Assembly: GCF_000006985.1 (NCBI RefSeq)
Contig: NC_002932.3
Span: 1,771,292 to 1,835,291 of the forward strand
DNA: 64,000 nucleotides
Direction: 5' to 3'
DNA from: Chlorobaculum tepidum TLS
Lineage (GTDB): Bacteria; Bacteroidota; Chlorobiia; Chlorobiales; Chlorobiaceae
The first letter of the stretch is position 1, and the number at the start of each line of letters is the position of its first letter. The position numbers and the translations under genes are program-made. The notes under the pieces are model-generated. The model was given only the letters and a program-made list of their open reading frames with translations, was not told the origin of the DNA and searched no databases. Shown piece after piece: positions 36,931-51,149 of this stretch.

Positions 36931-38058
36931 TCATTTTCTCGACATTATTATATCAACTTCTCCTGGCTTCATTGTCTTGTCCCCGAAGAGTTTTGTTTGA
37001 GTTTTTGTGTCCTTTGTCAAAGGTTTTTCGACAATCTTAACTGAATGATTTGGGAAATGCCTTTTCAGTATTTCAAGTGTAGAGTTGAAAGTAAATTCTC
37101 TCTTGTCTGTCCGAACATAAACAGTGCTTTCTCTTTTCATCATTTTGGCACAAAGTCCAAAAACGTTGTCCAGTAAGTCATAATATTCTTGTTTATTTAC
37201 AAATCGCCCTTTATGCTTATCTTTTAGTGATTGAGGATTTTCTGAACCACCTAAAAGCCACAGTCGCAACCACTGGTCCGCGTGATAGTCAGTAATCGAG
37301 TAATAGGGTGGTGAAGTAAACAGCAAAGAAAATTTTATATCATTGTTTATTGCTCTTTCTGCAATGCTTATTAATTTATTTGAACTATCACCGAACACAA
37401 CGGCACTCTCAGAAACTTTTGGTTTACCTTTCTCGTAACGCCATTCGATTTTTTTGAGAATGAAATCGCAGGGGTTTATTTCAGGCGGTGTGGTCATATT
37501 GTTTTTCTTCCACCATTGCACAGAGTAATTCATCCCCATTGATTTAGTCATTCTCATTTGATTGGAAAGTCCTTCGCCAATTTTTGCGTGTAGGTAAATC
37601 AGAAGTATTGACATCAAAGTCGCATCAACTTTATTGTTTCTCCAATCTAAATGAGTTCGGGCGGCTAACAGGAATTTAAGAACTTCGTCACAGTAACAAA
37701 TGCGATAAAATTCGGGCATTTTTTGGATTGCTCGGTTATAATAGTTTCTCTTACTGTAAATTTCAAGTAGTCGGTCAATGACTTCTTCTTTTTCTGCTGG
37801 ATGCAGTTTTACAGTTCCATACAACCAACCAACAGGGTTAATTTCTAATCCTAAACTATTTCTTCCTAAAACGCCACCAGCATATATACTACTGCATCTA
37901 CCCGCAAAAGGGTCAATTATATAATCACCGTTCTTTGAGTATTTCTCAACTACATCAAATGCAAATTCTAAAGGAAACATTGCATAGTATGGTCCAAACC
38001 TTGCCCAACGTGCTTCGGCAGTTTCAAAACCTTTCAATATTTTTTCCTTTGCTATCAT
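36931..38058 (-). CDS. DNA methyltransferase (N4-C/N6-A type) of the HerA-NurA operon
   Basis: 375 aa. The SAM-binding motif DPFAGRCSS is at residues 49-57 and the catalytic motif TSPPYYSITDYHAD is at 248-261. About 190 residues separate them, probably including target recognition. The motif types are those of beta-class amino methyltransferases, but the order (I then IV) is like the alpha or gamma class. The start overlaps the NurA stop (ATGA), so it is translationally coupled to a nuclease. It would modify DNA, presumably marking the host genome. Confidence 0.82.
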   Translation of the reverse strand: MIAKEKILKGFETAEARWARFGPYYAMFPLEFAFDVVEKYSKNGDYIIDPFAGRCSSIYAGGVLGRNSLGLEINPVGWLYGTVKLHPAEKEEVIDRLLEIYSKRNYYNRAIQKMPEFYRICYCDEVLKFLLAARTHLDWRNNKVDATLMSILLIYLHAKIGEGLSNQMRMTKSMGMNYSVQWWKKNNMTTPPEINPCDFILKKIEWRYEKGKPKVSESAVVFGDSSNKLISIAERAINNDIKFSLLFTSPPYYSITDYHADQWLRLWLLGGSENPQSLKDKHKGRFVNKQEYYDLLDNVFGLCAKMMKRESTVYVRTDKREFTFNSTLEILKRHFPNHSVKIVEKPLTKDTKTQTKLFGDKTMKPGEVDIIMSRK

Positions 38059-39422
38059 TCTTTTGATTTCTCTCTTATTTCTCTTGCAATGTCTTCAAAA
38101 ATTCGCTTGCCTAAGTTCAAAGGAATTGCTGCTTCTGCGTGTGCTGAAACTAACGGAGAAACAGAATTCGGGTATCTGCTTGAAACAAGTAGGTCTAGCA
38201 AATTCATAACATCTGCTAATCTTGTAAATTGGTCAGGATTTGCTGTATTAAGATTTCTTTGATACTCGTTGAAACAAGCTACGACAGGAACAATTTTTTG
38301 ACCTGATGCCGCTTTGTAGAAAAGTTTTCTTCCAAAATAAGTGTCTTGACCGTAAGGTTTGATACTCTCAGAAAAAATGATATTTCGTTTTATGTAGCCG
38401 TCATTTAAGAGTAAGGCAGATTGTTTTGGAAATTTATCAGTTACGCCATCTTTGGTAGTGTCTATCTCAATGAAGTGATTGAAGAATGTTCCTGATTTTT
38501 CAATTCCAATGATTAAAAGGTCTTGACCATTTATTTTCCGTTGAAGGTCATTCAGCCGAGTTAATTCGTGACTTATAACTTTTGTTAACCAAGATGAAGT
38601 GCTAAATACGGCTAAAGGTCCATCCATTATAAAAGCAACTCTGCGAAGTGTTGCTAACCAACCTTTGCGTTCAAATGCTCTTAGAATGTGAACAAGCCAA
38701 AGTTTTTCAAGAGTGGACATTATTTGCCCAAACATTTCACCATTGCTCCCGCCTGGGTTCATAAGTTCGTGTAAACGCAAAGCATCAGTTGAGAAAAGCG
38801 GCTCGCCTGAATGAGGACAAGTATATTCCCCAAAGTCATAAGTCATTTCTTCTTCAACTCCCTCAATTGGGCTTCTTGGTAAATTTCTTTCTTGAAAATG
38901 TTCACGTTTTATTCTAAAAAGATGCTCGTAGGTATCAAGCAAACTTTCTCCATCTGAAAAAATGGTGTTGCTGCGTAACTCTTCAAATAAAGCTCTCCGT
39001 AAGGAAGACTTAGCATTTTTTTCTGTATCGAGAATTACATTACAACCGGGAAAAACGCTTTCAATGGTTGATGCTTTTTCGGTTTCACGAAATTTCTTTG
39101 GTTCAACAAATTCCTTTTTTTCTAACTCTCCAATTAATTTCAAGTCAATTAATACGGAAGCAATGGTAATGTAACCAAATTCAGCACCAGGAAATCCGTT
39201 TTCTGCTTTAGCAGCTAAATTGCTTCCATCAATTGCAAGAACTAAATCAGGTTGTAAGGTACTTTCGGTCAAATCAGATTTTTTGACTATTGAACCTTCA
39301 AAGTCTTCTGTTTCTTCTTCCTGTTGCCTTATTTTAAGTCGGTTTTGAAGTGATTTAACTTTTTCACTATCAAGTAACCGTCTTAAAGGCTCGTAACTGG
39401 CAAATTCTCCTTCAAAACTCAT
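38055..39422 (-). CDS. NurA-domain nuclease
   Basis: 455 aa. The NurA-type active site is suggested by VLAIDGSNLAAK (Asp65), FIMDGPLAVFSTSSWL (Asp267) and GIEKSGTFFNHF (about 306-317). The C-terminal NurA-like segment is SPLVSAHAEAAIPLNLGKRI. In archaea NurA is a 5'-3' exonuclease/endonuclease that works inside the HerA hexamer to resect DNA ends. Here it sits 11 bp after the HerA-like gene and overlaps the methyltransferase start by 4 bp. It is longer than archaeal NurA (about 340 aa), mainly in the 100-240 region. Confidence 0.83.
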   Translation of the reverse strand: MSFEGEFASYEPLRRLLDSEKVKSLQNRLKIRQQEEETEDFEGSIVKKSDLTESTLQPDLVLAIDGSNLAAKAENGFPGAEFGYITIASVLIDLKLIGELEKKEFVEPKKFRETEKASTIESVFPGCNVILDTEKNAKSSLRRALFEELRSNTIFSDGESLLDTYEHLFRIKREHFQERNLPRSPIEGVEEEMTYDFGEYTCPHSGEPLFSTDALRLHELMNPGGSNGEMFGQIMSTLEKLWLVHILRAFERKGWLATLRRVAFIMDGPLAVFSTSSWLTKVISHELTRLNDLQRKINGQDLLIIGIEKSGTFFNHFIEIDTTKDGVTDKFPKQSALLLNDGYIKRNIIFSESIKPYGQDTYFGRKLFYKAASGQKIVPVVACFNEYQRNLNTANPDQFTRLADVMNLLDLLVSSRYPNSVSPLVSAHAEAAIPLNLGKRIFEDIAREIREKSKE

Positions 39423-39433
39423 ATGATAGTGTG

Positions 39434-41539
39434 TTAAACTTCAAACCTGTCCACTTGAACTGGAATGACAAATAGGTTACTTAAAGTCTTTACTCTTAAA
39501 AACCCTTTATCTTGGGCTCGTCTTATGGATGGTTCAAAGTCTGCAAAGTCGTAATACTTGCAAAGTTCTTTTGTCTCATCGGTATTGTTCAAATGGCTAA
39601 TAAACCAATTGGCAGTGTTTTTAAGAATGTTCTTTTGAATGCTGCTTACTTCTTGCGTGGCGTAAACCATTCCGATGCGATACTTAGAACCTTCTTTTGC
39701 AGTCCTTACCCAAATGTCTGATAAATCTAAATCATTACCTGCAGGCAAAATATTGTGGGCTTCTTCAACATAAACTAAAATTTCAGGAATGTTTGTTTCG
39801 CCTTGAACAAATTTTCTTTGATTTTCTTTGAAAATCTTTGTCATTATTCTGGTCGCAGAAGATTTGTTGAGTTCGGGTTCTCCACTTGATTGGTCAATTA
39901 TTACCAATTTACCTTGAACAAGGTGGTTGTAAATATCTTCTGCATAATCACTTGTTGTGTCGGCACTATGTTGTTCTGCCGCTTTGCCGATTTTTCTAGT
40001 TCCGTTGGAATATTGAAAAATGCCAATAATTTTTTTCAAATCTTCATCAGCCCATCTGTCGCCTGAACCATTAGGACGACTTACATAAGCATTTTCAAAT
40101 GCGGTGTAATTACTACTGCTGTCTCGAATGAATTTATCTAATGCTTCAAAAGCGTTAGCAAGTTGACCCCAAGCAGGATTTGGGTTTGAGAATACTTGTG
40201 CTGCTGAAACATATTCAGGGGTTGGCGGATTATTATTTCTTCCCGTTTGAAGGGCGGTAATCAAGTCTTGATTAAATAGACCCCTTGTGCTTGCCCTTAA
40301 ACTTGGTGGAACTTGAAAACCTGCTCTGGCTAATACTGAACGATAGGCTAATAATCGTCTGTTATAACGTGTAGTTGCACTTCGGTCATTTGGGTCAGGT
40401 TCATCAAAGCTTACTTGGCAGAATTGTTTGATGTAATTAGTGCTATCTTCTGATAGGATGCTATCAATAATACTTTTTCCAATCTGCGTATTACTTGTTT
40501 CAAAGAAGTTTAAAAGCATTAAGGTTCTTTCAAGGTCATTTGGATGTCTTGTAATTCCATAGGTAATAACTTCGTTTGCCTTTACACCATTAGGCAAAAG
40601 TTGCCAAACATTTTTAAGAGCGGAATTATTGTCCTGAACATTTTCATTTGCATACTCACCATTTGGGTCAAAAATAATTTGCCCTATTCGTAGCGGTCTG
40701 TCATTAGGATTTTCATTTTTTCTTAATTCAAATACTGATTTGGCGATAATTTTAGTGGTGTTTGATTTACCCGTTCTTGTCATACCGAACAATGCAGATT
40801 TTTGAGATAGCAAGTCCGCAGGATATATATAAACTGGAACATCATCTACTTGCTGATATTTACGATTTGTTGAAGCATAGCGAACAAATCCAAGTTTCAC
40901 TCTCTCTGTGTTTCCGTATTTCTCTGTGTGAGCCTGAATACTTGTAGGGTCTGCGTAATTTACGATTTGTTCAAGTGCTTTTCCGTTTGGCTTATAAACT
41001 TTCAAGCCCCTGTTTGGGTAATAATTAGAAATATCGCTACCAAATTTCAGGTTAAGAGGGGCGTCACCATTTTGACCGTTTTCTTCAAGAAAGAATGTTC
41101 CAATAATTCGGCATTGAACACCAGCAAATCCAAGAATGTTTTTTGTTCGCAAGTCCATTGAACCTGCATCATCCCAATGTTTTTCAGTTTCTCCGCTTAT
41201 TCTTTGAGCCGTTTCAACTCTAATTCTTTCTGCTTCTTTGTCTTGTGGTAAAGCTGCTGCATCCATTACTCGTAAAAGAACAAATGAAGCATCTTCCTTT
41301 TTAAAGTCAATATCTGTTTTACTTGGGTCAACTCGTGTCGCAATTAGAAAACTTAAACTTGGTATTCCACCAACTTTCTCTCTGTAAAAGTCGTGAATGA
41401 TTACTCTTGCTGTCTCATAGTTGATAGAGTAAATGTCACCAACATACTGGTCTGCTTGAATAAGCTTTTGAAACCATTGTTGGCTTTCAACTTGTTTGTC
41501 GTTTTCTCGTCTTGAGTTAAGTCCCTGTTCTATACTCAT
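39434..41539 (-). CDS. HerA/FtsK-type DNA-translocating ATPase
   Basis: 701 aa. Walker [11 protein letters not shown] (252-261), IIFDPNGEY (288-296), Walker [13 protein letters not shown] (587-598), a [10 protein letters not shown] sensor segment (626-635) and a C-terminal [11 protein letters not shown] motif (649-659). This is the HerA-type DUF87 pattern. The first 250 residues form a beta-rich HAS-like domain plus a variable N-terminus. It would form a hexameric ring that moves double-stranded DNA. First gene of the HerA-NurA-methyltransferase operon; codon use is AT-rich like the rest of the island. Confidence 0.9.
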
Positions 41540-41579
41540 ATTGTCAATTTATTAGTTGTCAAATTTATTAATTTCTGTC

Positions 41580-41695
41580 GGTGCGTTGGCAAAAAAATGA
41601 CTCTTTTGGTTTTTTGAGTTTTGGCTCATGTGTAGGCAAAAACCAAATGTGCCATTTGCGTGTCGGCTGTCTTTTTTACACTGACGCACAACTTG
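41580..41695. repeat. Imperfect palindrome upstream of the HerA operon
   Basis: Outer arms gtgcgttggc (41580) and ctgacgcac (41685-41694) enclose T- and G-rich repeats (ttttggtttttt, gttttggctc). The sequence is similar in style to the other inter-cassette structures. The 41540-42243 gap also holds the hairpin at 41703-41761, the aroA terminator at 42102-42127 and one doubtful ORF. Confidence 0.45.
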
Positions 41696-41702
41696 CTTAT
41701 AT

Positions 41703-41761
41703 GCGCTACTCTATTGCGCCTTACATCCCATATCAGACCAATAAGCGCAACAAAGTAGCGC
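41703..41761. repeat. 17-bp stem hairpin at the island border
   Basis: GCGCTACTCTATTGCGC (41703-41719) and GCGCAACAAAGTAGCGC (41745-41761) pair at 15 of 17 positions around a 25-base loop. It follows attatgcgc-like sequence and lies at the right border of the AT-rich island. Confidence 0.65.
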
Positions 41762-42085
41762 GTTATTGCCCGGTGTTCTCTTGTCGTGTTTATTACAAAT
41801 CATCAAATGGGCTTTTAATTCTCTCCAAACTTTGTTGGCTCCATTCCCCCCATCCGCATCCGAGACAACCCAACGACCGCAACTCCGCCAAACGCCTGAC
41901 AGCAGCGGCTTTACACCTGCGAATTCGAGCAGCGCGTTCTTTATGGAAGTACTTGCGTGAGGCATTTGCTGTGGGAGAAAGGTGAAACTACCTTGTACTT
42001 CAGCCAACACATTCATTGAAAGTAAAAAATCTGTTCCGCCGCGCAAACAAATCAGGGAAACTTGCCACAGGATTTCCTTTTTCAT
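41711..42085 (-). CDS. Doubtful 124-aa ORF at the island border
   Basis: Frame from ATG 42085 (MKKEILWQVSLICLRGGTDF) to 41711, 124 aa. It has no recognised domain, and its last residues run into the 41703-41761 hairpin, which argues against a native C-terminus. It has no good ribosome binding site and sits 17 bp after the aroA terminator hairpin. It may be a decayed gene or chance frame. Listed only because the 700-bp gap has no better candidate. Confidence 0.25.
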   Translation of the reverse strand: MKKEILWQVSLICLRGGTDFLLSMNVLAEVQGSFTFLPQQMPHASTSIKNALLEFAGVKPLLSGVWRSCGRWVVSDADGGNGANKVWRELKAHLMICNKHDKRTPGNNALLCCAYWSDMGCKAQ

Positions 42086-42101
42086 CTCCCCCCAGAAACG
42101 C

Positions 42102-42127
42102 AAAAAACCGGGCGATGCCCGGCTTTT
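42102..42127 (-). terminator. Rho-independent terminator downstream of aroA
   Basis: Minus-strand hairpin ccgggc / gcccgg with a 3-base loop followed by six T, about 120 bp after the aroA stop. It marks the boundary between the backbone and the island. Confidence 0.7.
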
Positions 42128-42243
42128 GCAATGGTGTCGATTGTCGAAAGAATCGTAAAAGCATGATGCGGAGCCTCCAGCTCCATTGCCGAGCAGGCGC
42201 TCGGCGCTCCCAGGGAAAATTCCCGCCCCTACCCTTCTCCCCC

Positions 42244-43548
42244 CTACTGCCGCAGCGAGTCGATCAGGGCGAAGAAATTCGGGAACGACACGCCCGCCAC
42301 GTCGCGATCCGAGAGGCGCAGCGATGCGCCGGCGGCTTCGGCGGCGATGGTGAAGCTCATGGCGATGCGGTGGTCGTCGAAGCACTCGATCTCAACCTCT
42401 TCTGAAGCGACGGTTTTCCGTCCCTTCACCACAAAGCCATCGGCGTACTGCTCGCACTCGAAGCCGAGACGCTGAAGATTCACCACCAGCGCGTCGATGC
42501 GGTCGCTCTCCTTGGTGCGCAGCTCGGCGGCGTTGTGCAGCTCGAACTCGCCCGAGGCGAAGGCCGAGAGCACGGCAAGCATCGGCACCTCGTCGATCAC
42601 CCCAGCCACAACGCCGTGGTCGCTGATGCGCAGCGGCTTCAAGCCGGAGCAGCTCCGGACGACGATATCACCCACCGGCTCGCCGCCCTCCGAACGCACG
42701 TTCTCGATGCCGAGGCCCGCGCCCGCCTCCTGCAACACGTCGATGTAGGCCACGCGCGTCGGATTGAGGCAGACGTTGCGCAGCACGATCTCCGAGCGCT
42801 CGCCGAGCAGGCCGAGGGCGATCATGAAGCAGGCCGCCGAGGGATCGGCGGGTACCTTGAACGGTTTGGCGGCAATCGGCTTGCGCCCGTCGATGATGAT
42901 CTCGCGAACGCCGTCGGGCCGATCGATGGTTGCGAGGCCCAGCATCAGCTCGGTATGGTCGCGCGAACGGATCGGCTCGATGATTTTCGACTGGCCATCG
43001 GCGTGCAGCGCCGCAAAGGCCACGAGCGACTTCACCTGCGCCGAGGGCACCGGCAGACGGTACTCGATCGTCTTCAGCGCTTTGGTGCCGTGGATGACGA
43101 CCGGCGCGGTTCCGGCGTCGGAAAGCGAAATTTCGGCGCCCATCTGCCGCAGCGGATCGGCGACGCGCTTCATCGGGCGCTTCATCAGCGAAGCGTCACC
43201 CACCAGCTCGCTCCGGAAAGGCTGCGCGGCCATAATACCCGCCATCATGCGCATCGTACTGCCGGAGTTGTTGCACATCAGCGGCACGGAGGGCTCACGG
43301 AAACTCCAGAGGCCGTTCGACTCGATCACCACGCGCCGCTCGATCCGCCCGTCACCGGCGGAAAGCTCCTCCTGTCGAATGGAAATACCGGCATCGCGCA
43401 GCACCGACAGGGTTGACTGGTTATCGTATCCACCCGAAAAGTTGGAAATCTCGGTCGTGCCTTCGGCGAGCGCGCCGATAAGCGCGGCGCGATGCGAAAT
43501 CGATTTGTCCGGCGGAAGGGTCGTCACCTCGCCCTGAAAAGTGCTCAT
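42244..43548 (-). CDS. aroA: 3-phosphoshikimate 1-carboxyvinyltransferase
   Basis: 434-aa EPSP synthase of the shikimate pathway, which joins shikimate-3-phosphate and PEP. Signature segments are [20 protein letters not shown] (residues 11-30), [19 protein letters not shown] (about 90-108) with the family NSGTxxR-like motif, and [21 protein letters not shown] near 345 (KESDR). Complete, with normal length. Upstream is the rpsU gene and its terminator. Confidence 0.95.
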
Positions 43549-43571
43549 TGCTGGCTGTTTTTGAGTTCGAT

Positions 43572-43601
43572 AAAAAAAGCAGCCCCAAGGGAGCTGCTTT
43601 T
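43572..43601 (-). terminator. Rho-independent terminator of rpsU
   Basis: Minus-strand stem aaaagcagc / gctgctttttt, starting about 20 bp after the rpsU stop. Confidence 0.8.
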
Positions 43602-43622
43602 CAATACTGAATTCCTGAAAAA

Positions 43623-43820
43623 TCAGGAGTTGCGCTCTTCGTTAGCGCGCTGTGCGCGACGCTTGCTTCTTGAACGCTTCAGACGTTTTTCGATCGAAGG
43701 CTTCACGAAGTACGCCTTTTTACGAAACTCCTTCAGAACGCCTGCTCTCTCGTATTTCTTTTTGAAACGTTTGAGCAGCTTGTCAATCGATTCGTTTTCA
43801 TTCACCTGAACGCTGACCAA
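43623..43820 (-). CDS. rpsU: 30S ribosomal protein S21
   Basis: 65 aa, [20 protein letters not shown] with the basic C-terminus [17 protein letters not shown]: a standard S21. The frame has no ATG or GTG near its start. The most plausible start is TTG at 43820-43818, with aagggggtg seven bases upstream. S21 is in the small ribosomal subunit near the anti-Shine-Dalgarno region. Confidence 0.92.
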
Positions 43821-43852
43821 TGAAATTCACCCCCTTGCCTGTGATTCGACTC

Positions 43853-44413
43853 TTAACGCCGTAATTTAAGTTTGATAATATCCGTAACCGACTCGGTGCT
43901 TTTCGGCTTGCCCTGGTTGAGCTGCACGTTTTCGAGAAGCTGCTTCCGGCCGCTTTTGCAAAATTCCACGATGATAACATGCGCGCCGCTTCCGGTCGCA
44001 TGTTTTTCACGAACAACGCCCACTTCATCAAGGGATTTGTGATACAAAGCATCCCCCTGCGCATAGATTCCATGAGGAGTATAGAGCTGGCAATCCTCGG
44101 GCTTCAGCTCGTCGGGGCTCAGCTCCTTGTCGATCTGTATCTGCCACTCCTTGAGAAGATGCACCTGGTTGCAGGAGGTGCACCGGATCCAGTACTGGTT
44201 TTCGGCAGCCGAAGCCTCCTCTTCCGCGGCCGGATTCTTCTCCTTCGACTTTTTATCGGACAATCCGAAAAGCGGATCCTCATCCTTAGGCTTGTCGCTC
44301 GGCTTCCATTCACCAACAAACACCCGCTCGGTGACACAACCACAGCCATCGCAAAAACCAGGTTTGATCTTGCCTTCGAGTATGTACTGCCTTTTTCTGG
44401 ACTCTACCTTCAT
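43853..44413 (-). CDS. Hypothetical protein with zinc-ribbon-like cysteines
   Basis: 186 aa. Two cysteine pairs, CDGCGC (about residues 21-26) and CTSC (about 78-81), could bind one zinc. They are separated by an acidic, Lys-rich segment (DKKSKEKNPAAEEEASAAEN). The C-terminal half (GIYAQGDALYHKSLDEVGVV to KQLLENVQL) looks like a small beta domain of the CarD/Tudor type, which could bind nucleic acid or polymerase. Family not recognised. The 44414-44669 gap upstream contains no gene I trust. Confidence 0.65.
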   Translation of the reverse strand: MKVESRKRQYILEGKIKPGFCDGCGCVTERVFVGEWKPSDKPKDEDPLFGLSDKKSKEKNPAAEEEASAAENQYWIRCTSCNQVHLLKEWQIQIDKELSPDELKPEDCQLYTPHGIYAQGDALYHKSLDEVGVVREKHATGSGAHVIIVEFCKSGRKQLLENVQLNQGKPKSTESVTDIIKLKLRR

Positions 44414-44669
44414 AAATGTCGCTGTTGTTGGAGTGCATGTCCCTGCCCTCTGTCATGCGCTTGCACAAGGTTCGGAAGTACTTTCCTGAACAGGTTCCGG
44501 GGACGTTACCCGGTTTAGGCCATCGATCATGCCTCATGTCCAAGGAAATATGGCTTCAGCAGAGACGTACAGGAACCATAGCTGATGATGGTTCCGTAAA
44601 GCTCTCTGCTCAGGAGTGCTTAGATAAGTAAATCACCCCAAAAAAACAACCATATAATTCAGACAGACA

Positions 44670-46040
44670 TCACTTGCGAGTCAGCACATCGATAAGGTCT
44701 GATTTGTTAATCAGTTGCAAGCGGCCATCGCTGAGGCTGATGAGCACGCCGGATGCATTTGTCTGCAATTTTTCCGACAGTTCGGAAATGGTTGCATCGG
44801 GCTGGCAGACCGGGAACGGCTTTTCCATGAAGGCAACCACCTTGGCGTTCATGGCCGAATCGTTCTCAATGAGAATCGAGAGAATCCTGTTTTCACTGAT
44901 GCTGCCGATGGGCGCGCCGAACGAAACAATGGGCATCTGGGAAACGTCGTTCTGCTTCATTGTTTCGAAAACCTCGGCAAGCGTCTGCTCAGGCTGGGCG
45001 AAGATGAGGTCTTTGTGGGCCTTGCGTTGCAGAATGTCGTCCGCCGTGATCTGGTCGAGCGCGGTCTTGGATTTCCGGTAAAATCCCTGACGCCGCATCC
45101 AGTCATCGTTGTACATGCGCGACAGGTCGTAGCCGCCAAAGTCGGTCATCATCACCACCACCAGCGCGTCATCGCCGTACGCCTCGCCCTCCCGGAGAGC
45201 CGCAGCCATCGCCGCGCCGGAGGCTCCGCCCGCGAAGACCGCTTCGGCACGCAGCAACTCGCGGCCGCAGTTGAATGCGTCGGCATCGCTGACCTGCACG
45301 ATCCGGTCGATCACGTTGGGGTCCCAGAAAGAGGTCGGCCTGACCGCGCCGATATCTTCGAGCTGGAACGCGGAGGGAGTGCCTTGGCTCTTGCCGCCAT
45401 GCAGATCGCCGTAAACCGAACCCTCCGGCTCAACGCCAATGATCTGAACCTCCGGATTGACCGATTTGAAGTAGCGGCCGATCCCGGAGATCATCGCGCC
45501 CGAAGCCATCGGCACGAAGAGGTGCGTCACCTTGCCCTCAGTCTGCCGGAAAATCTCTGGCCCCGTGCCATCCTGATGCACCTGGCGGCTGACCGGATTT
45601 TGGTACATGTTGGCAAACCAGGCATTCGGCAGCGTGCGGACAAGGTTCTCGGCTACATCGACGCAGCTTTGCAGATCGCCCGGCAGCGCCTCGGACGGGG
45701 TGAGCACCAGCTCCGCGCCCAGCGCCCGAAGGACCTCCTGCTTCTCGCGGCAGATGCTCTCCGGCGCGGCGAGCAACACTTTGTAGCCCCGGCTGACGGC
45801 GGCCATCGCGAGCGCGATGCCGCTGGTGCCGAAGGTCCAGTCCACGAGCGTCATGCCGGGATGAATCGCCCCGCGCTCCTCGGCGTCACGCACGATGGCC
45901 CCCGAAACCCGGCAATAGTGCGAAAAGCAGGGGCTCATGTATTCGAGCTTCGCCATGAACCGTGCGCGCTTCTGCCGGGTAAGCTGCTTCATGAGAACCA
46001 GCGGAGTGTTGTCCGAGATGTCAAAAATGTCGTTGGTCAT
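44670..46040 (-). CDS. Cystathionine beta-synthase-like protein lacking PLP-binding residues
   Basis: 456 aa with the full CBS layout: an N-terminal fold type II PLP-enzyme domain (about 1-320) and two C-terminal CBS domains (about 328-390 and 400-456). However, the PLP lysine motif SxKDR is S40-H-Y-C-R44, with Tyr42 in place of Lys. The TSGNTG loop is TFGTSG (69-74), and the GTGGT phosphate loop is ASGAM (179-183). PLP chemistry is therefore unlikely, and it may be a sensor or scaffold. It is transcribed divergently from alr. Confidence 0.85.
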   Translation of the reverse strand: MTNDIFDISDNTPLVLMKQLTRQKRARFMAKLEYMSPCFSHYCRVSGAIVRDAEERGAIHPGMTLVDWTFGTSGIALAMAAVSRGYKVLLAAPESICREKQEVLRALGAELVLTPSEALPGDLQSCVDVAENLVRTLPNAWFANMYQNPVSRQVHQDGTGPEIFRQTEGKVTHLFVPMASGAMISGIGRYFKSVNPEVQIIGVEPEGSVYGDLHGGKSQGTPSAFQLEDIGAVRPTSFWDPNVIDRIVQVSDADAFNCGRELLRAEAVFAGGASGAAMAAALREGEAYGDDALVVVMMTDFGGYDLSRMYNDDWMRRQGFYRKSKTALDQITADDILQRKAHKDLIFAQPEQTLAEVFETMKQNDVSQMPIVSFGAPIGSISENRILSILIENDSAMNAKVVAFMEKPFPVCQPDATISELSEKLQTNASGVLISLSDGRLQLINKSDLIDVLTRK

Positions 46041-46204
46041 GGTGCTCGATACTCTGATAATGGTTTTTCCGTGAATAATAATACATAGAACAATAATTGT
46101 CCATTCCCGTCAGTTAATCGCCATTGTTTTGAAAATCATGGGCAAAAAGCGTTTTTTAGAGCATGTCCGGCTTCCAGCCTGAACCTCAACCATAAATCAC
46201 CCTT

Positions 46205-47356
46205 GTGAGCGCCAGTCACGAACAGAACTCCGCCGCCGCGCCGAACGGCCCTAACCTTTCGGAAGCGCTCATTTCACTCGGCAATCTCCGCCACAACCTC
46301 GCCTGCATCCGCGCCATCACCGGGCCGCAATGCCGTGTCATGGGCATCGTCAAGGCCAACGCCTATGGTCACGGAGCCACGCAGGTCACGGCAACGCTCG
46401 AAGCAGAGGGAGTGCGGGATTTCGGCGTGGCCAACATTTACGAAGCGATCGAACTTCTTCAGGAGCACCGGATGCTGCCGGACTCGCGCATCCTCGCTTT
46501 CGCCTCGCCTCTCGCCGGACATATCGATCTGTATCTGCAACACGGCGTGGAAATGACCGTCTGCGACCACGAAACTGCCCGAGCTGCCGAATCGATTGCC
46601 GCCGCATGCGGTAGACGGCTCCAGGTGCAGCTCAAGGTCGATACCGGCATGGGGCGGCTCGGCGTCACGCCCGAAGAAGCAGCGGAACTGCTGGAGCTGA
46701 TCGAGGCCTGCCCGAACCTTGAGTTGACCGGCATCTACACCCATTTCGCTGAAAGCGACAAGCCTGAAGGATTCACTGCCCGGCAACTCGAACGTTTCCT
46801 GCACGTAACCGGCGCTTACGAGCGTCGAACGGGCAAAACCGTGACGAAGCATGCGGCAAACAGCGGAGCCATTATCTCGATGCCAGACGCACGGCTCGAC
46901 ATGGTGCGCCCGGGGATTCTGCTCTATGGCTGCCATCCGGTTGACGCCGCACCCTCGACCGTTCCCGTCAGGCCGGTGATGCAGTTCCAGAGCCGTGTGA
47001 TCTTCGTCAAGGAGGTGCCCGCAGGCACGGCCATCAGCTACAACCGCACATGGAGCGCGCCTAAAGCGACACGAATCGCGACGATCTCCGCCGGATATGC
47101 CGACGGCTTCCATCGCGCGCTTTCCAACCAAGCGCGGGTGAGCATCGGCGGCAAAAGCTTCCCGCAGGTCGGCACGATCACAATGGATCAGACGATGGTC
47201 AATCTGGGTAGTGATGATTCGGTCAAGGTCGGCGACACGGCAGTGCTCTTCGGCTGGGACGGCCCGTCGGCAGGTGAGCAGGCCCTCGCCGCCGGAACGA
47301 TCAGCTACGAACTGCTCTGTTCGGTTTCCCGCCGCGTCAGAAGAATAGTTGTTTAA
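46205..47356 (+). CDS. alr: Alanine racemase
   Basis: 383 aa, GTG start at 46205. It is a PLP enzyme making D-alanine for peptidoglycan. The PLP-lysine motif is IVKANAYGHGATQV (about 48-61, Lys50). The catalytic tyrosine is in ISAGYADGFHRALSNQARVS near 295, and the C-terminal beta domain includes VGTITMDQTMVNLG. Complete. The gene is divergent from the CBS-like gene across 164 bp. A HhH gene follows after 52 bp. Confidence 0.94.
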   Translation: MSASHEQNSAAAPNGPNLSEALISLGNLRHNLACIRAITGPQCRVMGIVKANAYGHGATQVTATLEAEGVRDFGVANIYEAIELLQEHRMLPDSRILAFASPLAGHIDLYLQHGVEMTVCDHETARAAESIAAACGRRLQVQLKVDTGMGRLGVTPEEAAELLELIEACPNLELTGIYTHFAESDKPEGFTARQLERFLHVTGAYERRTGKTVTKHAANSGAIISMPDARLDMVRPGILLYGCHPVDAAPSTVPVRPVMQFQSRVIFVKEVPAGTAISYNRTWSAPKATRIATISAGYADGFHRALSNQARVSIGGKSFPQVGTITMDQTMVNLGSDDSVKVGDTAVLFGWDGPSAGEQALAAGTISYELLCSVSRRVRRIVV

Positions 47357-47408
47357 CAAGCATCGCCATTGCGATGACCTGAATCCCCTAACAGAAAATT
47401 CAACCCCT

Positions 47409-47924
47409 ATGAATTTTCTCAACAACATCGCCGTCAAACTCGGCATCACCAGAGCGGAAATAACCGCCGTCACACTGCTCACCTTCTTCCTGCTGCTCGG
47501 AGGAGCGCTGAAGTACAGCGGTTCGGTGCAGAATACCGACAAGGCGATCAAAAAAGCCGAAACGGCCCGCTACTCCGAAGCCGAGGTGGACAGTCTGCTC
47601 AGCCTCGCCATGAAGCCCGGCGATACGGTGGCGGCTGAAACCTCCGGCGTCGTTGCGGAAAATGCGGAACAGGAGGAGACAGCGCCGAAATCTTCGGCAA
47701 GGCGTACATCGAAAAAACAGTTTTCCGGAACCATCGTTTTCAGAACGGCGTCGGCTTCGCAACTCCAGATGATCCCCGGCGTCGGTCCGATGATGGCCAA
47801 GCGCCTTATCGAGTTCCGAAAACAGAATGGGGGAAAAGTCGAACATTTTAACGATTTTCTGAAAGTCAAGGGAATCGGCAAGAAAAAACTCGAACTCCTC
47901 CAAAAGCATCTTACCCTCAACTGA
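47409..47924 (+). CDS. ComEA-like helix-hairpin-helix protein
   Basis: 171 aa from ATG 47409. One N-terminal membrane segment (TAVTLLTFFLLLGGALKYS, about 19-37), a linker rich in Ala, Glu and Lys, and a C-terminal HhH domain (ASASQLQMIPGVGPMMAKRL and FNDFLKVKGIGKKKLELLQK). It resembles the DNA-binding competence protein ComEA. Its stop overlaps the next start (TGATG), so both genes are one operon. Confidence 0.85.
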   Translation: MNFLNNIAVKLGITRAEITAVTLLTFFLLLGGALKYSGSVQNTDKAIKKAETARYSEAEVDSLLSLAMKPGDTVAAETSGVVAENAEQEETAPKSSARRTSKKQFSGTIVFRTASASQLQMIPGVGPMMAKRLIEFRKQNGGKVEHFNDFLKVKGIGKKKLELLQKHLTLN

Positions 47925-48787
47925 TGAGCCGGAGCCAGACAGCCTGTGCGTTCGACGCGAACAGCACCACCATAGCGCGAGTCAAATCGACCGGTCACGG
48001 CTCGTTTACGATGACCATGTGCCGCACCATCGAGGGAGGGCTTGACGATCTGGGCAGTCCGAGAGGTTCGAAGCTCGCCGGAAAGCTCCTCTCAGCGCTC
48101 AAAGAGTGGCGAAACGAACCGGTCGCCCTCAGCTTTTCCCCCGCAGAACTCATGACCCTGCCGGCCTGGTTCCCGTCCGGAAGTTCTGCCGAATACTGCG
48201 ACAGCCTGTGCAGGATAGAGGCTGGCTATTTTCTCCATGAGGCCGATAGATGGCAATGGCACGATATGGTGCTGGAACCAACCCCTGACCAGCCCTCCGG
48301 ACTGGATCGGCGGATGCTGCTCTTCTATCCGGTCAAACCGGCGCAATTCATCGAAAACGAGCTATTAAAACATGCTCGTGTTGGCTGGCGGGGAGTACAT
48401 GTCGAAGCAGTGGCCCGCCTGTCCTCCGTGACAGGAGAAACACTGGCAGTCCTGGAGCTCGAAGAACGCTATGCGGCGCTCTCTATTTCGACAAACGGTA
48501 AAATCAGCTATTTCCGGTACTGGCCGGTAAAGGATGGGAGTGAACGGGAATACTTTGCCATCAGAGAGCTGACCTCGGCTCCCATCGATGGAGCACCTGT
48601 TAAAGTGACCGGCTCGGCTGCGAGCGCAAAAGTCATTGAGCGCATCGGCCGGGAAACTGCCTGTGCTATCGAGCCGCTCGAACTGCACCCGTGGGTATCA
48701 GTAGAAAAAGGCGCCAGCAAAGGAAAATCACCAACCGCCACCATTCGCGCCGTCAGCACAGCCATCATGGCGCTGAACGGCGGGTGA
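47924..48787 (+). CDS. Hypothetical protein, possibly PilM-like
   Basis: 287 aa overlapping the ComEA-like stop by one base. The opening MSRSQTACAFDANSTTIARV and the alternating beta/alpha pattern resemble the ASKHA-fold PilM/ComA-type assembly proteins. The phosphate-binding loops are not clearly preserved. Coupling to a ComEA-like gene supports a role in DNA uptake or pilus assembly, which is an inference. No PilN- or PilO-like genes follow, because an ISL3 insertion and decayed sequence come next. Confidence 0.5.
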   Translation: MSRSQTACAFDANSTTIARVKSTGHGSFTMTMCRTIEGGLDDLGSPRGSKLAGKLLSALKEWRNEPVALSFSPAELMTLPAWFPSGSSAEYCDSLCRIEAGYFLHEADRWQWHDMVLEPTPDQPSGLDRRMLLFYPVKPAQFIENELLKHARVGWRGVHVEAVARLSSVTGETLAVLELEERYAALSISTNGKISYFRYWPVKDGSEREYFAIRELTSAPIDGAPVKVTGSAASAKVIERIGRETACAIEPLELHPWVSVEKGASKGKSPTATIRAVSTAIMALNGG

Positions 48788-48929
48788 TCCACTATTTTTG
48801 ACGAACTGCTAATGTTGTTTAGATTTGAAGAGTTGGTGGTTTCATTTTTCTGAATCCAGAGGGTGGTCGCTATCATGGATCGAAATTCATCGCGAAGAAA
48901 AAAACCACTTCTAATCAAGGGACTTGACC

Positions 48930-49050: not shown

Positions 49051-50413
49051 GGCTCTTCGCAGAATATCGTGGAAAGCTGTGGCTGTAATGGGTAACTTGG
49101 CGTAGTCGTGCAATTCAAGCAAGCTAACCACATTGATCCGCCCATGCAGAGCCTGTCAAGCCATTACCACCAACTGTTAGGTCTTCCCTCAAACTGGGAA
49201 GTCGAGAACGTCAACTTGTCGATGAGTAGCCGGCAAGTGGAGATCAGACTGGCCTTTACCGGCAAGCAGGGCGAGTGTCCAATCTGCGGCCAATCATGCC
49301 TCATCTATGACCATGCCGCTGAGCAGCGGTGGCGTCATCTTGATACGATGCAGTTCGAGACGATTCTGGTGGCCCGTTTGCCTCGTTGCCAATGCAAGGA
49401 GCATGGAGTCAAAACCGTTCAGGCGCCATGGGCGGCACGGCATTCTCGTTTCACGTTGCTGTTCGAGAGCTTCGCCGTCGAGCTGTTGTTGCACTGTGCC
49501 AATATCAAGGCGGCGTCGCGCCTGTTGCGCTTGAACTGGCATACCGTCAATCAAATCATGCGACGCGCCGTTCAGCGAGGATTGGTTCGCCGGAAAACCG
49601 AAACCGTCGAGTATCTGGGCATCGATGAAAAAAGCTTCAAGGCGGGCCAGCATGACGTCACAACGCTGACTGATCTCGGCGAAAGGCGCGTGCTTGAGGT
49701 GGTCGAGCATCGCACGACCGAGGCGACCAAAGAGCTGCTTGCATCGCTGAACGACAGCCAGCAAGCAGGGGTCAAGGCGGTCTCGGTCGATATGTGGAAA
49801 CCCTTTATCCATGCCGTTCAAGAGCTGTTGCCGAAGGCCGATCTGGTGCATGATCGCTTTCATATCAGCAAGTATCTCAATGAGGCTGTCGATCTGGTGC
49901 GTCGCAAGGAGTGTCGCCAACTCGACAAGGCCGGAGACAAACGCCTGATCGGCTCAACATATGTCTGGCTGCGTAATCCGGAAAACATGGGTGAGCAGCA
50001 ACAGGCCGAGCTGGGCAAGCTGATGGACGCGGAGTTCAGAACCGGGAAGGCGTGGTCGTTGAAAAATATGTTTCGAGCCTTCTGGCAGCTTGGTTGCGCT
50101 GATGCCGGGACGTTTTTTTTCGAGTACTGGTCGAAGCGGATCGATGAGGTTGGTCTGGTTCCGTTGACGAAGGTCAAAGAGCTGCTTCAGCGCCATTTCG
50201 GCAACGTCTTGACCTGGTTCAAACACCCGATCACCAACGCAGTTTCCGAAGGCTTGAACAGCAAGATTCAGATCGTCAAGGCCTCTGCAAGAGGGTTTCA
50301 CCGGTTCGAGAGTTACCGAATCCGGATTTTGTTTTACTGCGGAAAACTCAACATGGCTATCGGATCATGACGTAACCCAGCGCTCCTTTACCCACGATAT
50401 TCTGCGAAGAACC
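49051..50413 (+). mobile_element. ISL3-family insertion sequence
   Basis: Terminal inverted repeats start GGCTCTTCGCAGAATATCGT at 49051 and, on the other strand, GGTTCTTCGCAGAATATCGT from 50413. They match at all but one of 20 positions. It encodes one transposase. AAAGCCTT occurs on both sides (49033-49040 and 50418-50425), but not immediately adjacent to both ends, so a clean target duplication is not shown. Confidence 0.85.
49144..50370 (+). CDS. ISL3-family transposase
   Basis: 408 aa from ATG 49144 (GTG 49108 possible). The N-terminal zinc-binding region is CPICGQSC...RCQCKEHG (about residues 40-95). The DDE-type core follows, with the first acidic motif in YLGIDEKSFKAGQHDV (about 160-175) and the second in KAVSVDMWKPFIHAV near 211. 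The final segment is PITNAVSEGLNSKIQIVKAS (Glu near 377). No stop or shift interrupts it, so the element may be active. Confidence 0.93.
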   Translation: MQSLSSHYHQLLGLPSNWEVENVNLSMSSRQVEIRLAFTGKQGECPICGQSCLIYDHAAEQRWRHLDTMQFETILVARLPRCQCKEHGVKTVQAPWAARHSRFTLLFESFAVELLLHCANIKAASRLLRLNWHTVNQIMRRAVQRGLVRRKTETVEYLGIDEKSFKAGQHDVTTLTDLGERRVLEVVEHRTTEATKELLASLNDSQQAGVKAVSVDMWKPFIHAVQELLPKADLVHDRFHISKYLNEAVDLVRRKECRQLDKAGDKRLIGSTYVWLRNPENMGEQQQAELGKLMDAEFRTGKAWSLKNMFRAFWQLGCADAGTFFFEYWSKRIDEVGLVPLTKVKELLQRHFGNVLTWFKHPITNAVSEGLNSKIQIVKASARGFHRFESYRIRILFYCGKLNMAIGS

Positions 50414-50498: not shown

Positions 50499-50777
50499 TT
50501 ATTTATATATCACCCGTGCATCAGCAACAAGCGGAAAGCGTTCCGGATTTTCTATAATTTCCTCCGTCAAATCGACATCCAGATCGGGCCACCAGAAATG
50601 ACCGGGCGACTGCTCCTTGACGTTGAGAATCGATTTTACCGTCTGATCCCTAAACCACGGAAAATCAGCATACGACAAAAAAAGCTCTTTCCCGTGAGCA
50701 AGAAGCCAGATGCCGTGCTGTGATATATTCGACACCTCAACTGCTGAAATGCTTTCTCCATGCTTTAACAAGTTCAT
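50499..50777 (-). CDS. DUF2442 protein (toxin-antitoxin-like pair)
   Basis: 92 aa, MNLLKHGESISAVEVSNISQ, with the DUF2442 pattern GIWLLAHGKELFLSYADFPW and FWWPDLDVDLTEEIIENPE. It overlaps the DUF4160 gene upstream by 41 bp. DUF2442 and DUF4160 genes are often paired and have been suggested to be toxin-antitoxin-like, without firm evidence. The gap 50371-50498 behind it has no gene. Confidence 0.75.
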   Translation of the reverse strand: MNLLKHGESISAVEVSNISQHGIWLLAHGKELFLSYADFPWFRDQTVKSILNVKEQSPGHFWWPDLDVDLTEEIIENPERFPLVADARVIYK

Positions 50778-50976
50778 CGCTGTGCGCCTCCACTATTGAT
50801 TCAATCTGCTTCAACTGAATTCTGGAATATCCATGATTCTTTGCAAGTTCAAGTTCAGGTTCCAGCCAAAACTTCGCCTCGCCGTCCCCCGATATAACGT
50901 GCACATGCATCCTTTTCTCTTCACGCAAAAAGAAGAAAAATCGAAATCCCTGCTCACAAAAAACGGTAGGACTCAT
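50737..50976 (-). CDS. DUF4160 protein (toxin-antitoxin-like pair)
   Basis: 79 aa from ATG 50976 (MSPTVFCEQGFRFFFFLREE). It matches the DUF4160 core: an N-terminal FFFFLREE strand, HVHV (KRMHVHVISGDGEAKFWLEP) and a C-terminal helical VEAHSDELVKAWRKHF. It forms an overlapping pair with the DUF2442 gene on the same strand and lies just outside the ISL3 element. The function of either partner is not established here. Confidence 0.75.
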   Translation of the reverse strand: MSPTVFCEQGFRFFFFLREEKRMHVHVISGDGEAKFWLEPELELAKNHGYSRIQLKQIESIVEAHSDELVKAWRKHFSS

Positions 50977-51149
50977 ACACGCTCCCCAAGATTTGGATTC
51001 CTCAACCGCAGAACAATATAACAATCCCTCTCCTCCCTCACCAAAAGCCAAAAACGCCCGCCCCTGCTGTCCTTGCCGTCCTGTCCTCCCAAATAAAAAG
51101 AGCGGCCACAAGAACCGCCCCTACAAGAAATTCAGTCACACATCAATCC

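What the first reader, a model, noticed from the sequence alone, without database searches (positions are those of the whole stretch)
44670..46040. Cystathionine beta-synthase relative that cannot bind PLP normally
All three PLP features are changed: lysine motif (S-H-Y-C-R, Tyr in place of Lys), TSGNTG loop (TFGTSG) and GTGGT loop (ASGAM). The overall fold and both CBS domains are kept. This is a likely pseudoenzyme with a possible adenosine-nucleotide sensing role.
Basis: partly seen in the sequence, partly recalled or inferred. Interest (0 to 1): 0.6.

Follow-up and report, generated by a model that had tools for sequence, protein, structure and literature searches.

The report
Catalytically dead CBS regulator, green sulfur bacteria
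Across the family of green sulfur bacteria, a sulfur-metabolism enzyme (cystathionine beta-synthase) has lost the residues that hold its vitamin B6 cofactor, yet the gene is kept and its regulatory tail is now its most strongly conserved part, which suggests it has become a sensor or regulator instead of an enzyme.

Summary
Window 44670-46040 (-) encodes an intact 456-aa CBS-fold protein with Tyr in place of the PLP lysine. The TSGNTG and GTGGT loops are altered, and so is the Ser that contacts PLP (Ala). Among 71 full-length Chlorobiaceae sequences none has Lys (Tyr 69, Asp 1, Ser 1). The gene is found in 57 of 58 near-complete family genomes, without internal stops. Positional orthologs in sister families keep all eight PLP contacts (10/10); another class keeps the Lys (30/30). 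One loss on the Chlorobiaceae stem is the simplest history. The stem branch is long (1.16 substitutions/site), and evolution afterwards was constrained (median dN/dS 0.08 core, 0.04 Bateman). New result: conservation is inverted. In active orthologs the catalytic core is better conserved than the Bateman module (45/45 pairs; 434/435 in the other class). In Chlorobiaceae the Bateman module is better conserved (526/528). Best reading: a PLP-free pseudoenzyme kept as a regulatory protein whose Bateman module is the working part. Adenosine-ligand sensing fits (TxxD motif in CBS2) but is unproven; target and ligand are unknown. I found no description of it in the papers searched.

The parts
44670..46040 (-). 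CBS-like pseudoenzyme gene, 456 aa, intact ORF with ATG start
   Evidence: orthologs
45081..46028 (-). PALP / fold-type II core (residues 5-320), AlphaFold core mostly pLDDT 80-98; best PDB matches CBS/OASS-family structures (Z about 42, rmsd 1.7-1.9 over 307-315 residues)
45909..45929 (-). Former PLP-lysine motif: C-F-S-H-Y42-C-R in place of G-G-S-x-K-D-R
45819..45836 (-). Former TSGNTG substrate/PLP loop: T-F-G-T-S-G (residues 69-74)
45492..45506 (-). Former PLP phosphate loop GTGGT: A-S-G-A-M (residues 179-183)
   Evidence: PLP contacts from PMC9232105
45222..45224 (-). Ala273 in place of the Ser that contacts PLP in MtbCbs (S269)
44673..45053 (-). Bateman module (two CBS motifs, residues 330-456); most conserved part in Chlorobiaceae; CBS2 has (T/N)-K-S-D448

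Best explanation
The gene encodes a family-wide, PLP-free pseudoenzyme derived from a once-active cystathionine beta-synthase (CBS) at the base of the Chlorobiaceae. SHOWN: loss of the Schiff-base lysine in all 71 sequences and degeneration of the other PLP contacts; an intact ORF under strong purifying selection; a long stem branch followed by constraint; a shift of the strongest constraint from the catalytic core to the Bateman module; retention in nearly every near-complete genome. INFERRED: it neither binds PLP covalently nor does beta-replacement, and it works as a regulatory protein. In this view an adenosine-type ligand (AMP/ADP/ATP/SAM class) binds the Bateman module, most likely at the CBS2 (T/N)-K-S-D site, and changes the oligomer or exposed surface so that the dead CBS core docks to or releases a partner. 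A natural but untested partner is CysK, the only other O-acetylserine-sulfhydrylase/CBS-type fold-II protein in this genome, or CysE. In short, the enzyme's allosteric half was kept and its catalytic half became a scaffold.
For: Lys never present in 71 Chlorobiaceae sequences; position 179 has 7 residue types and the Ser269 equivalent is Ala in 69/71. The eight MtbCbs PLP contacts (PMC9232105) are 8/8 invariant in 10 sister-family orthologs and nearly so in 30 sequences of another class, whereas in Chlorobiaceae they are no more conserved than random core sites (P=0.63). Orthology: shared gene order CBS - 186 aa - rpsU - aroA in both groups and 18 residues shared by Chlorobiaceae and sister families but rare in the other class, e.g. 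Trp68. Tree: one clade 100/100 with stem 1.16. Between-family to within-sister distance ratio is 5.4 for this gene against 1.3 for the neighbouring aroA. dN/dS medians 0.084 core and 0.036 Bateman. Inverted conservation: Bateman above core in 526/528 Chlorobiaceae pairs, 0/45 sister-family pairs, 1/435 in the other class. Present in 57/58 genomes at least 95% complete, no internal stops. CBS2 T 67/71 and D 71/71. The Bateman model matches solved Bateman modules, including SAM-, AMP-, ATP- and c-di-AMP-bound ones. This genome has only one other CysK-type protein, with intact motifs.
Against: No biochemical data. Lys-to-Ala mutants of this fold have been crystallised (1d6s, complexed in external aldimine linkage; 3vc3 and 3x44 also listed), so loss of Lys alone does not exclude non-covalent PLP. 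Asn72 is kept in 49/71. The window protein itself has Asn in place of Thr in the CBS2 TxxD motif. MtbCbs SAM residues E390, S411, D432 and W433 are not kept (hand mapping), nor are they in the intact sister orthologs, so the ligand is unknown. The Bateman model has only moderate confidence (pLDDT 69). No partner is indicated by gene order: neighbours are the divergent alr, and rpsU and aroA.
Confidence: 0.6

Rival explanations
1. Neo-enzyme: the altered pocket has gained a new PLP-independent activity or binds a different cofactor or ligand, with Tyr42 and the new aromatic residues (Phe/Tyr70, Phe301, Tyr304) as the new site.
For: Several segments around the former site stay invariant or nearly so in Chlorobiaceae (Trp68, Gly71, Ser73, Gly74, Ser180, Phe301, Gly302), and residues 61-80 and 261-280 are the best-conserved parts of the core.
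Against: The pocket positions themselves vary: residue 42 Y/D/S, 41 H/P/N/D, 43 Y/C/G/F, 70 F/Y/C/V/S/D, 72 N/T/S/D, 179 seven types. No new set of catalytic residues is fixed. The strongest constraint is in the Bateman module, not in the pocket.
Confidence: 0.15
2. Regulatory pseudo-subunit: it forms mixed oligomers with the catalytically intact CysK and gives that enzyme, which lacks a Bateman domain, adenosine-ligand control. (A specific form of the best explanation.)
For: CysK is the only other O-acetylserine-sulfhydrylase-type protein in the genome and belongs to the same fold family. CBS and OASS proteins dimerise through the core (general knowledge; MtbCbs). In the window's genus cysK lies next to a cystathionine gamma-synthase/lyase gene in nearly all genomes listed.
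Against: No co-location of the pseudoenzyme with cysK. The two are only 35% identical, so a mixed interface is uncertain. Not tested.
Confidence: 0.2
3. It still binds PLP non-covalently and is a slow or specialised PLP protein, or a PLP carrier or sensor.
For: Lys-to-Ala relatives have been crystallised (titles of 1d6s, 3vc3, 3x44); Ser40, Ser180, Gly181 and often Asn72 remain.
Against: Phosphate-loop Gly179 is replaced by Ala, Ile, Val, Leu or Phe in most species and Thr183 by Met in 66/71; the PLP-contacting Ser is Ala in 69/71; Thr301 became Phe and Arg304 became Tyr in a conserved segment of active orthologs.
Confidence: 0.05
4. Relic gene on its way to decay, or a sequencing or annotation artefact.
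For: Active-site residues are lost.
Against: 71 genome sequences agree; 57/58 near-complete genomes keep a gene without internal stops; dN/dS is 0.04-0.08.
Confidence: 0.01

Closest known systems
Cystathionine beta-synthase with Bateman module (TIGR01137; MtbCbs Rv1077, PDB 7xnz; sister-family orthologs here)
   Same: Same domain order, length and fold (34-35% identity to 7xnz); positional ortholog of intact CBS genes in the same order
   Different: No PLP lysine; of the eight MtbCbs PLP contacts five are changed and one is conservatively changed (T to S); Bateman module more conserved than the core; MtbCbs SAM residues absent
C. elegans CYSL-1 (CysK homolog that lost biosynthetic activity and regulates EGL-9; described in PMC5562914)
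   Same: A member of the same fold family turned into a regulator
   Different: CYSL-1 has no Bateman module (own knowledge), keeps a bisulfide-binding site and works through the EGL-9 C-terminus; here the tail domain carries the constraint and no partner is known
Stand-alone Bateman regulators (e.g. B. subtilis DarB, which binds c-di-AMP and Rel)
   Same: Possible working mode: ligand-gated binding of a partner by a tandem CBS pair; structural match
   Different: Here the Bateman module is still fused to a full-length dead CBS core

Membership tests
Cystathionine beta-synthase (active enzyme, TIGR01137) | PLP Schiff-base lysine in S-x-K-D-R | tested here: not met
   Tyr42; no Lys in 71/71 Chlorobiaceae sequences; Lys in 10/10 sister orthologs
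Cystathionine beta-synthase (active enzyme, TIGR01137) | GTGGT phosphate loop, Asn of TSGNTG and PLP-contacting Ser | tested here: not met
   ASGAM, Thr72, Ala273 in the window protein
Cystathionine beta-synthase (active enzyme, TIGR01137) | NCBIfam equivalog cut-off 510.25 bits | tested here: not met
   330.7 bits; note that an intact sister ortholog scores 469 and also falls short
Cystathionine beta-synthase (active enzyme, TIGR01137) | Beta-replacement activity / cystathionine formation | not testable with these tools
   needs purified protein
Fold-type II (PALP) superfamily, by descent | PALP domain and fold | tested here: met
   PF00291 E=7.6e-57; AlphaFold core matches CBS/OASS-family structures at Z about 42
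Bateman-module (tandem CBS) proteins | Two CBS motifs in tandem | tested here: met
   two PF00571 stretches; Z 14.3 to the human CBS regulatory domain (model pLDDT 69)
Bateman-module (tandem CBS) proteins | Adenosine-ligand site, (S/T)xxD ribose motif | tested here: inconclusive
   CBS2 T 67/71, D 71/71; CBS1 has SENK without Asp; the window protein has Asn for Thr
SAM-responsive CBS (MtbCbs type) | SAM contacts E390, S411, D432, W433 | tested here: not met
   hand-mapped from the alignment: R385, E406, T427, N428; contacts, variation. The sister-family alignment does not keep them either
Pseudoenzyme (catalytically dead, conserved homolog) | Loss of catalytic residues with purifying selection and orthology to an active enzyme family | tested here: met
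   absence of activity itself not measured

The most novel reading that the evidence does not exclude
A whole bacterial family has turned its CBS into a dedicated regulator: a dead PLP-fold core gated by a Bateman module that reads adenylate charge or SAM and controls cysteine/sulfide assimilation in obligate sulfide-oxidising phototrophs, a bacterial parallel to C. elegans CYSL-1.
Probability: 0.3. Interest if true: 0.78.

Novelty: new variant of a known kind. Interest (0 to 1): 0.6.

Why it matters
Databases and pathway reconstructions can call this gene a CBS and so credit green sulfur bacteria with a transsulfuration step that this protein cannot plausibly catalyse. Because the active-to-dead change most simply happened once, with intact positional orthologs in sister families and some 70 dead descendants, it is a clean natural case of an allosteric enzyme becoming a regulator. 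The inversion of core and Bateman conservation is a simple statistic that could be used to find other such cases.

Tried and rejected
Metal or Fe-S site from the Cys-rich motif (C38, C43): rejected, since Cys is replaced by Ala38 and Tyr43 in most Chlorobium sequences. Operon-based function: the gene order downstream (186 aa, rpsU, aroA) is old and shared with the active-type orthologs, so it says nothing about the new role; alr is divergent and next to it only in Chlorobiaceae. Riboswitch control: no Rfam match in 41500-48800. Replacement by a foreign paralog: rejected by synteny and shared residues. Literature: no relevant paper for CBS with Chlorobaculum or Chlorobium, or for CBS/fold-II pseudoenzymes, in the library held; subscription journals are mostly not covered.

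Full report
OBSERVATION. The ORF at 44670-46040 (-) runs from ATG to stop and codes for 456 aa. It contains S-H-Y-C-R, T-F-G-T-S-G and A-S-G-A-M where CBS/OASS proteins have S-x-K-D-R, TSGNTG and GTGGT. Pfam assigns PALP (residues 10-300) and two CBS stretches in the C-terminal 135 aa. NCBIfam's best model is cystathionine beta-synthase, well under its cut-off (330.7 of 510.25 bits). A further change is Ala273 for the Ser that contacts PLP.

WHOSE GENE. The window lies in a single-contig genome of 2,154,946 bases. That size matches Chlorobaculum tepidum TLS as I remember it, and named Chlorobaculum records are 93-94% identical in this protein. The gene is present in 57 of 58 genomes at least 95% complete in the same family (Chlorobiaceae); the exception is a draft in about 200 contigs, and two further copies are cut short, their matches lying at contig ends. 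A scan of GTDB genomes gave 73 loci titled as Chlorobiaceae or green sulfur bacteria and one weak further match.

CONSERVED LOSS. In 71 full-length sequences the Lys position is Tyr 69, Asp 1, Ser 1, never Lys. Phosphate-loop Gly179 is Ala, Ile, Val, Gly, Ser, Leu or Phe; Thr183 is Met in 66; Ser273 is Ala in 69. Asn72 is kept in 49, so that one contact is only partly lost. Ten orthologs from sister families of the same order have all eight PLP contacts reported for MtbCbs (S42, K44, N74, G181, T182, G183, T185, S269; PMC9232105), as shown; 30 of 30 sequences from another class of the phylum have the Lys.

ORTHOLOGY AND TIMING. In Chlorobiaceae and in the sister families the gene is followed on the same strand by a 186-aa protein, ribosomal protein S21 and aroA, so this is the positional ortholog. 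Eighteen residues are shared by the two groups but rare in the other class, including Trp68. In a maximum-likelihood tree the Chlorobiaceae sequences form one clade (100/100) on a stem of 1.16 substitutions per site. Normalised to divergence within the sister families, the gene is 5.4 times as far between groups, against 1.3 for aroA next door. Within Chlorobiaceae it evolves at about the same pace as aroA. The picture is one burst, then constraint.

SELECTION AND THE INVERSION. Pairwise dN/dS (Nei-Gojobori) has medians of 0.084 for the core and 0.036 for the Bateman module. In intact sister orthologs core identity exceeds Bateman identity in 45 of 45 pairs (77% vs 65%), and in the other class in 434 of 435 (76% vs 39%). 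In Chlorobiaceae the Bateman module is the better conserved part in 526 of 528 pairs (core 63%, Bateman 82% between genera). Pairs are not independent, but the direction is uniform. The PLP-contact positions in Chlorobiaceae are no better conserved than random core positions (P=0.63). This argues that constraint has moved from catalysis to the regulatory module.

STRUCTURE. AlphaFold2 with 60 Chlorobiaceae sequences gives a confident core (most blocks pLDDT 80-98) and a poor Bateman region. The core matches CBS/OASS-family structures, e.g. Legionella CBS 6vju at Z 41.8, 1.7 A over 307 residues. The Bateman part folded alone reaches pLDDT 69 and matches human and Toxoplasma CBS regulatory domains (Z about 14) and ligand-binding Bateman proteins. 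CBS2 carries T-K-S-D (T 67/71, D 71/71); in the window protein T is N. By hand mapping from the alignment, the MtbCbs SAM contacts are not preserved, and the intact sister orthologs do not keep them either.

METABOLIC SETTING. The genome has five PALP proteins; besides this one only a single CysK-type enzyme, with intact motifs and above the cysK cut-off, encoded next to a cystathionine gamma-synthase/lyase-type gene. One CysE is present. So cysteine can come from O-acetylserine and sulfide, and CBS catalysis is dispensable in sulfide-rich habitats (inference).

INTERPRETATION. The protein is best read as a PLP-free pseudoenzyme kept for regulation. A mixed complex with CysK, a new pocket function and residual non-covalent PLP binding are the rivals. 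Known precedent for the fold as a regulator is C. elegans CYSL-1 (as described in PMC5562914).

LIMITS. No activity, ligand, partner or expression data were available; the literature search covers open-licence PMC papers only.

Noticed in passing
window 43853-44413 (-): 186-aa protein with CxxC pairs (zinc-ribbon-like) and no Pfam match, kept between the CBS gene and rpsU across the order (41-96% identity).
   Followed up: partly
window 38055-41539 (-): NurA- and HerA-type pair; among 34 compared loci only L055 carries it next to this region, so it looks like an accessory insertion.
   Followed up: partly
window 49108-50370 (+): Intact ISL3-family transposase; a 63% identical copy lies in L057 at a nearby place.
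   Followed up: partly
window 50499-51111 (-): DUF2442 and DUF4160 small gene pair, found only in L067 among the compared loci, at 97% identity, which suggests recent transfer.
   Followed up: partly
G000:C1:685342-687374 (L002): cysK directly beside a cystathionine gamma-synthase/lyase-type gene; the same adjacency occurs in nearly all genomes of this genus listed but not in the sister-family genomes looked at.
   Followed up: partly
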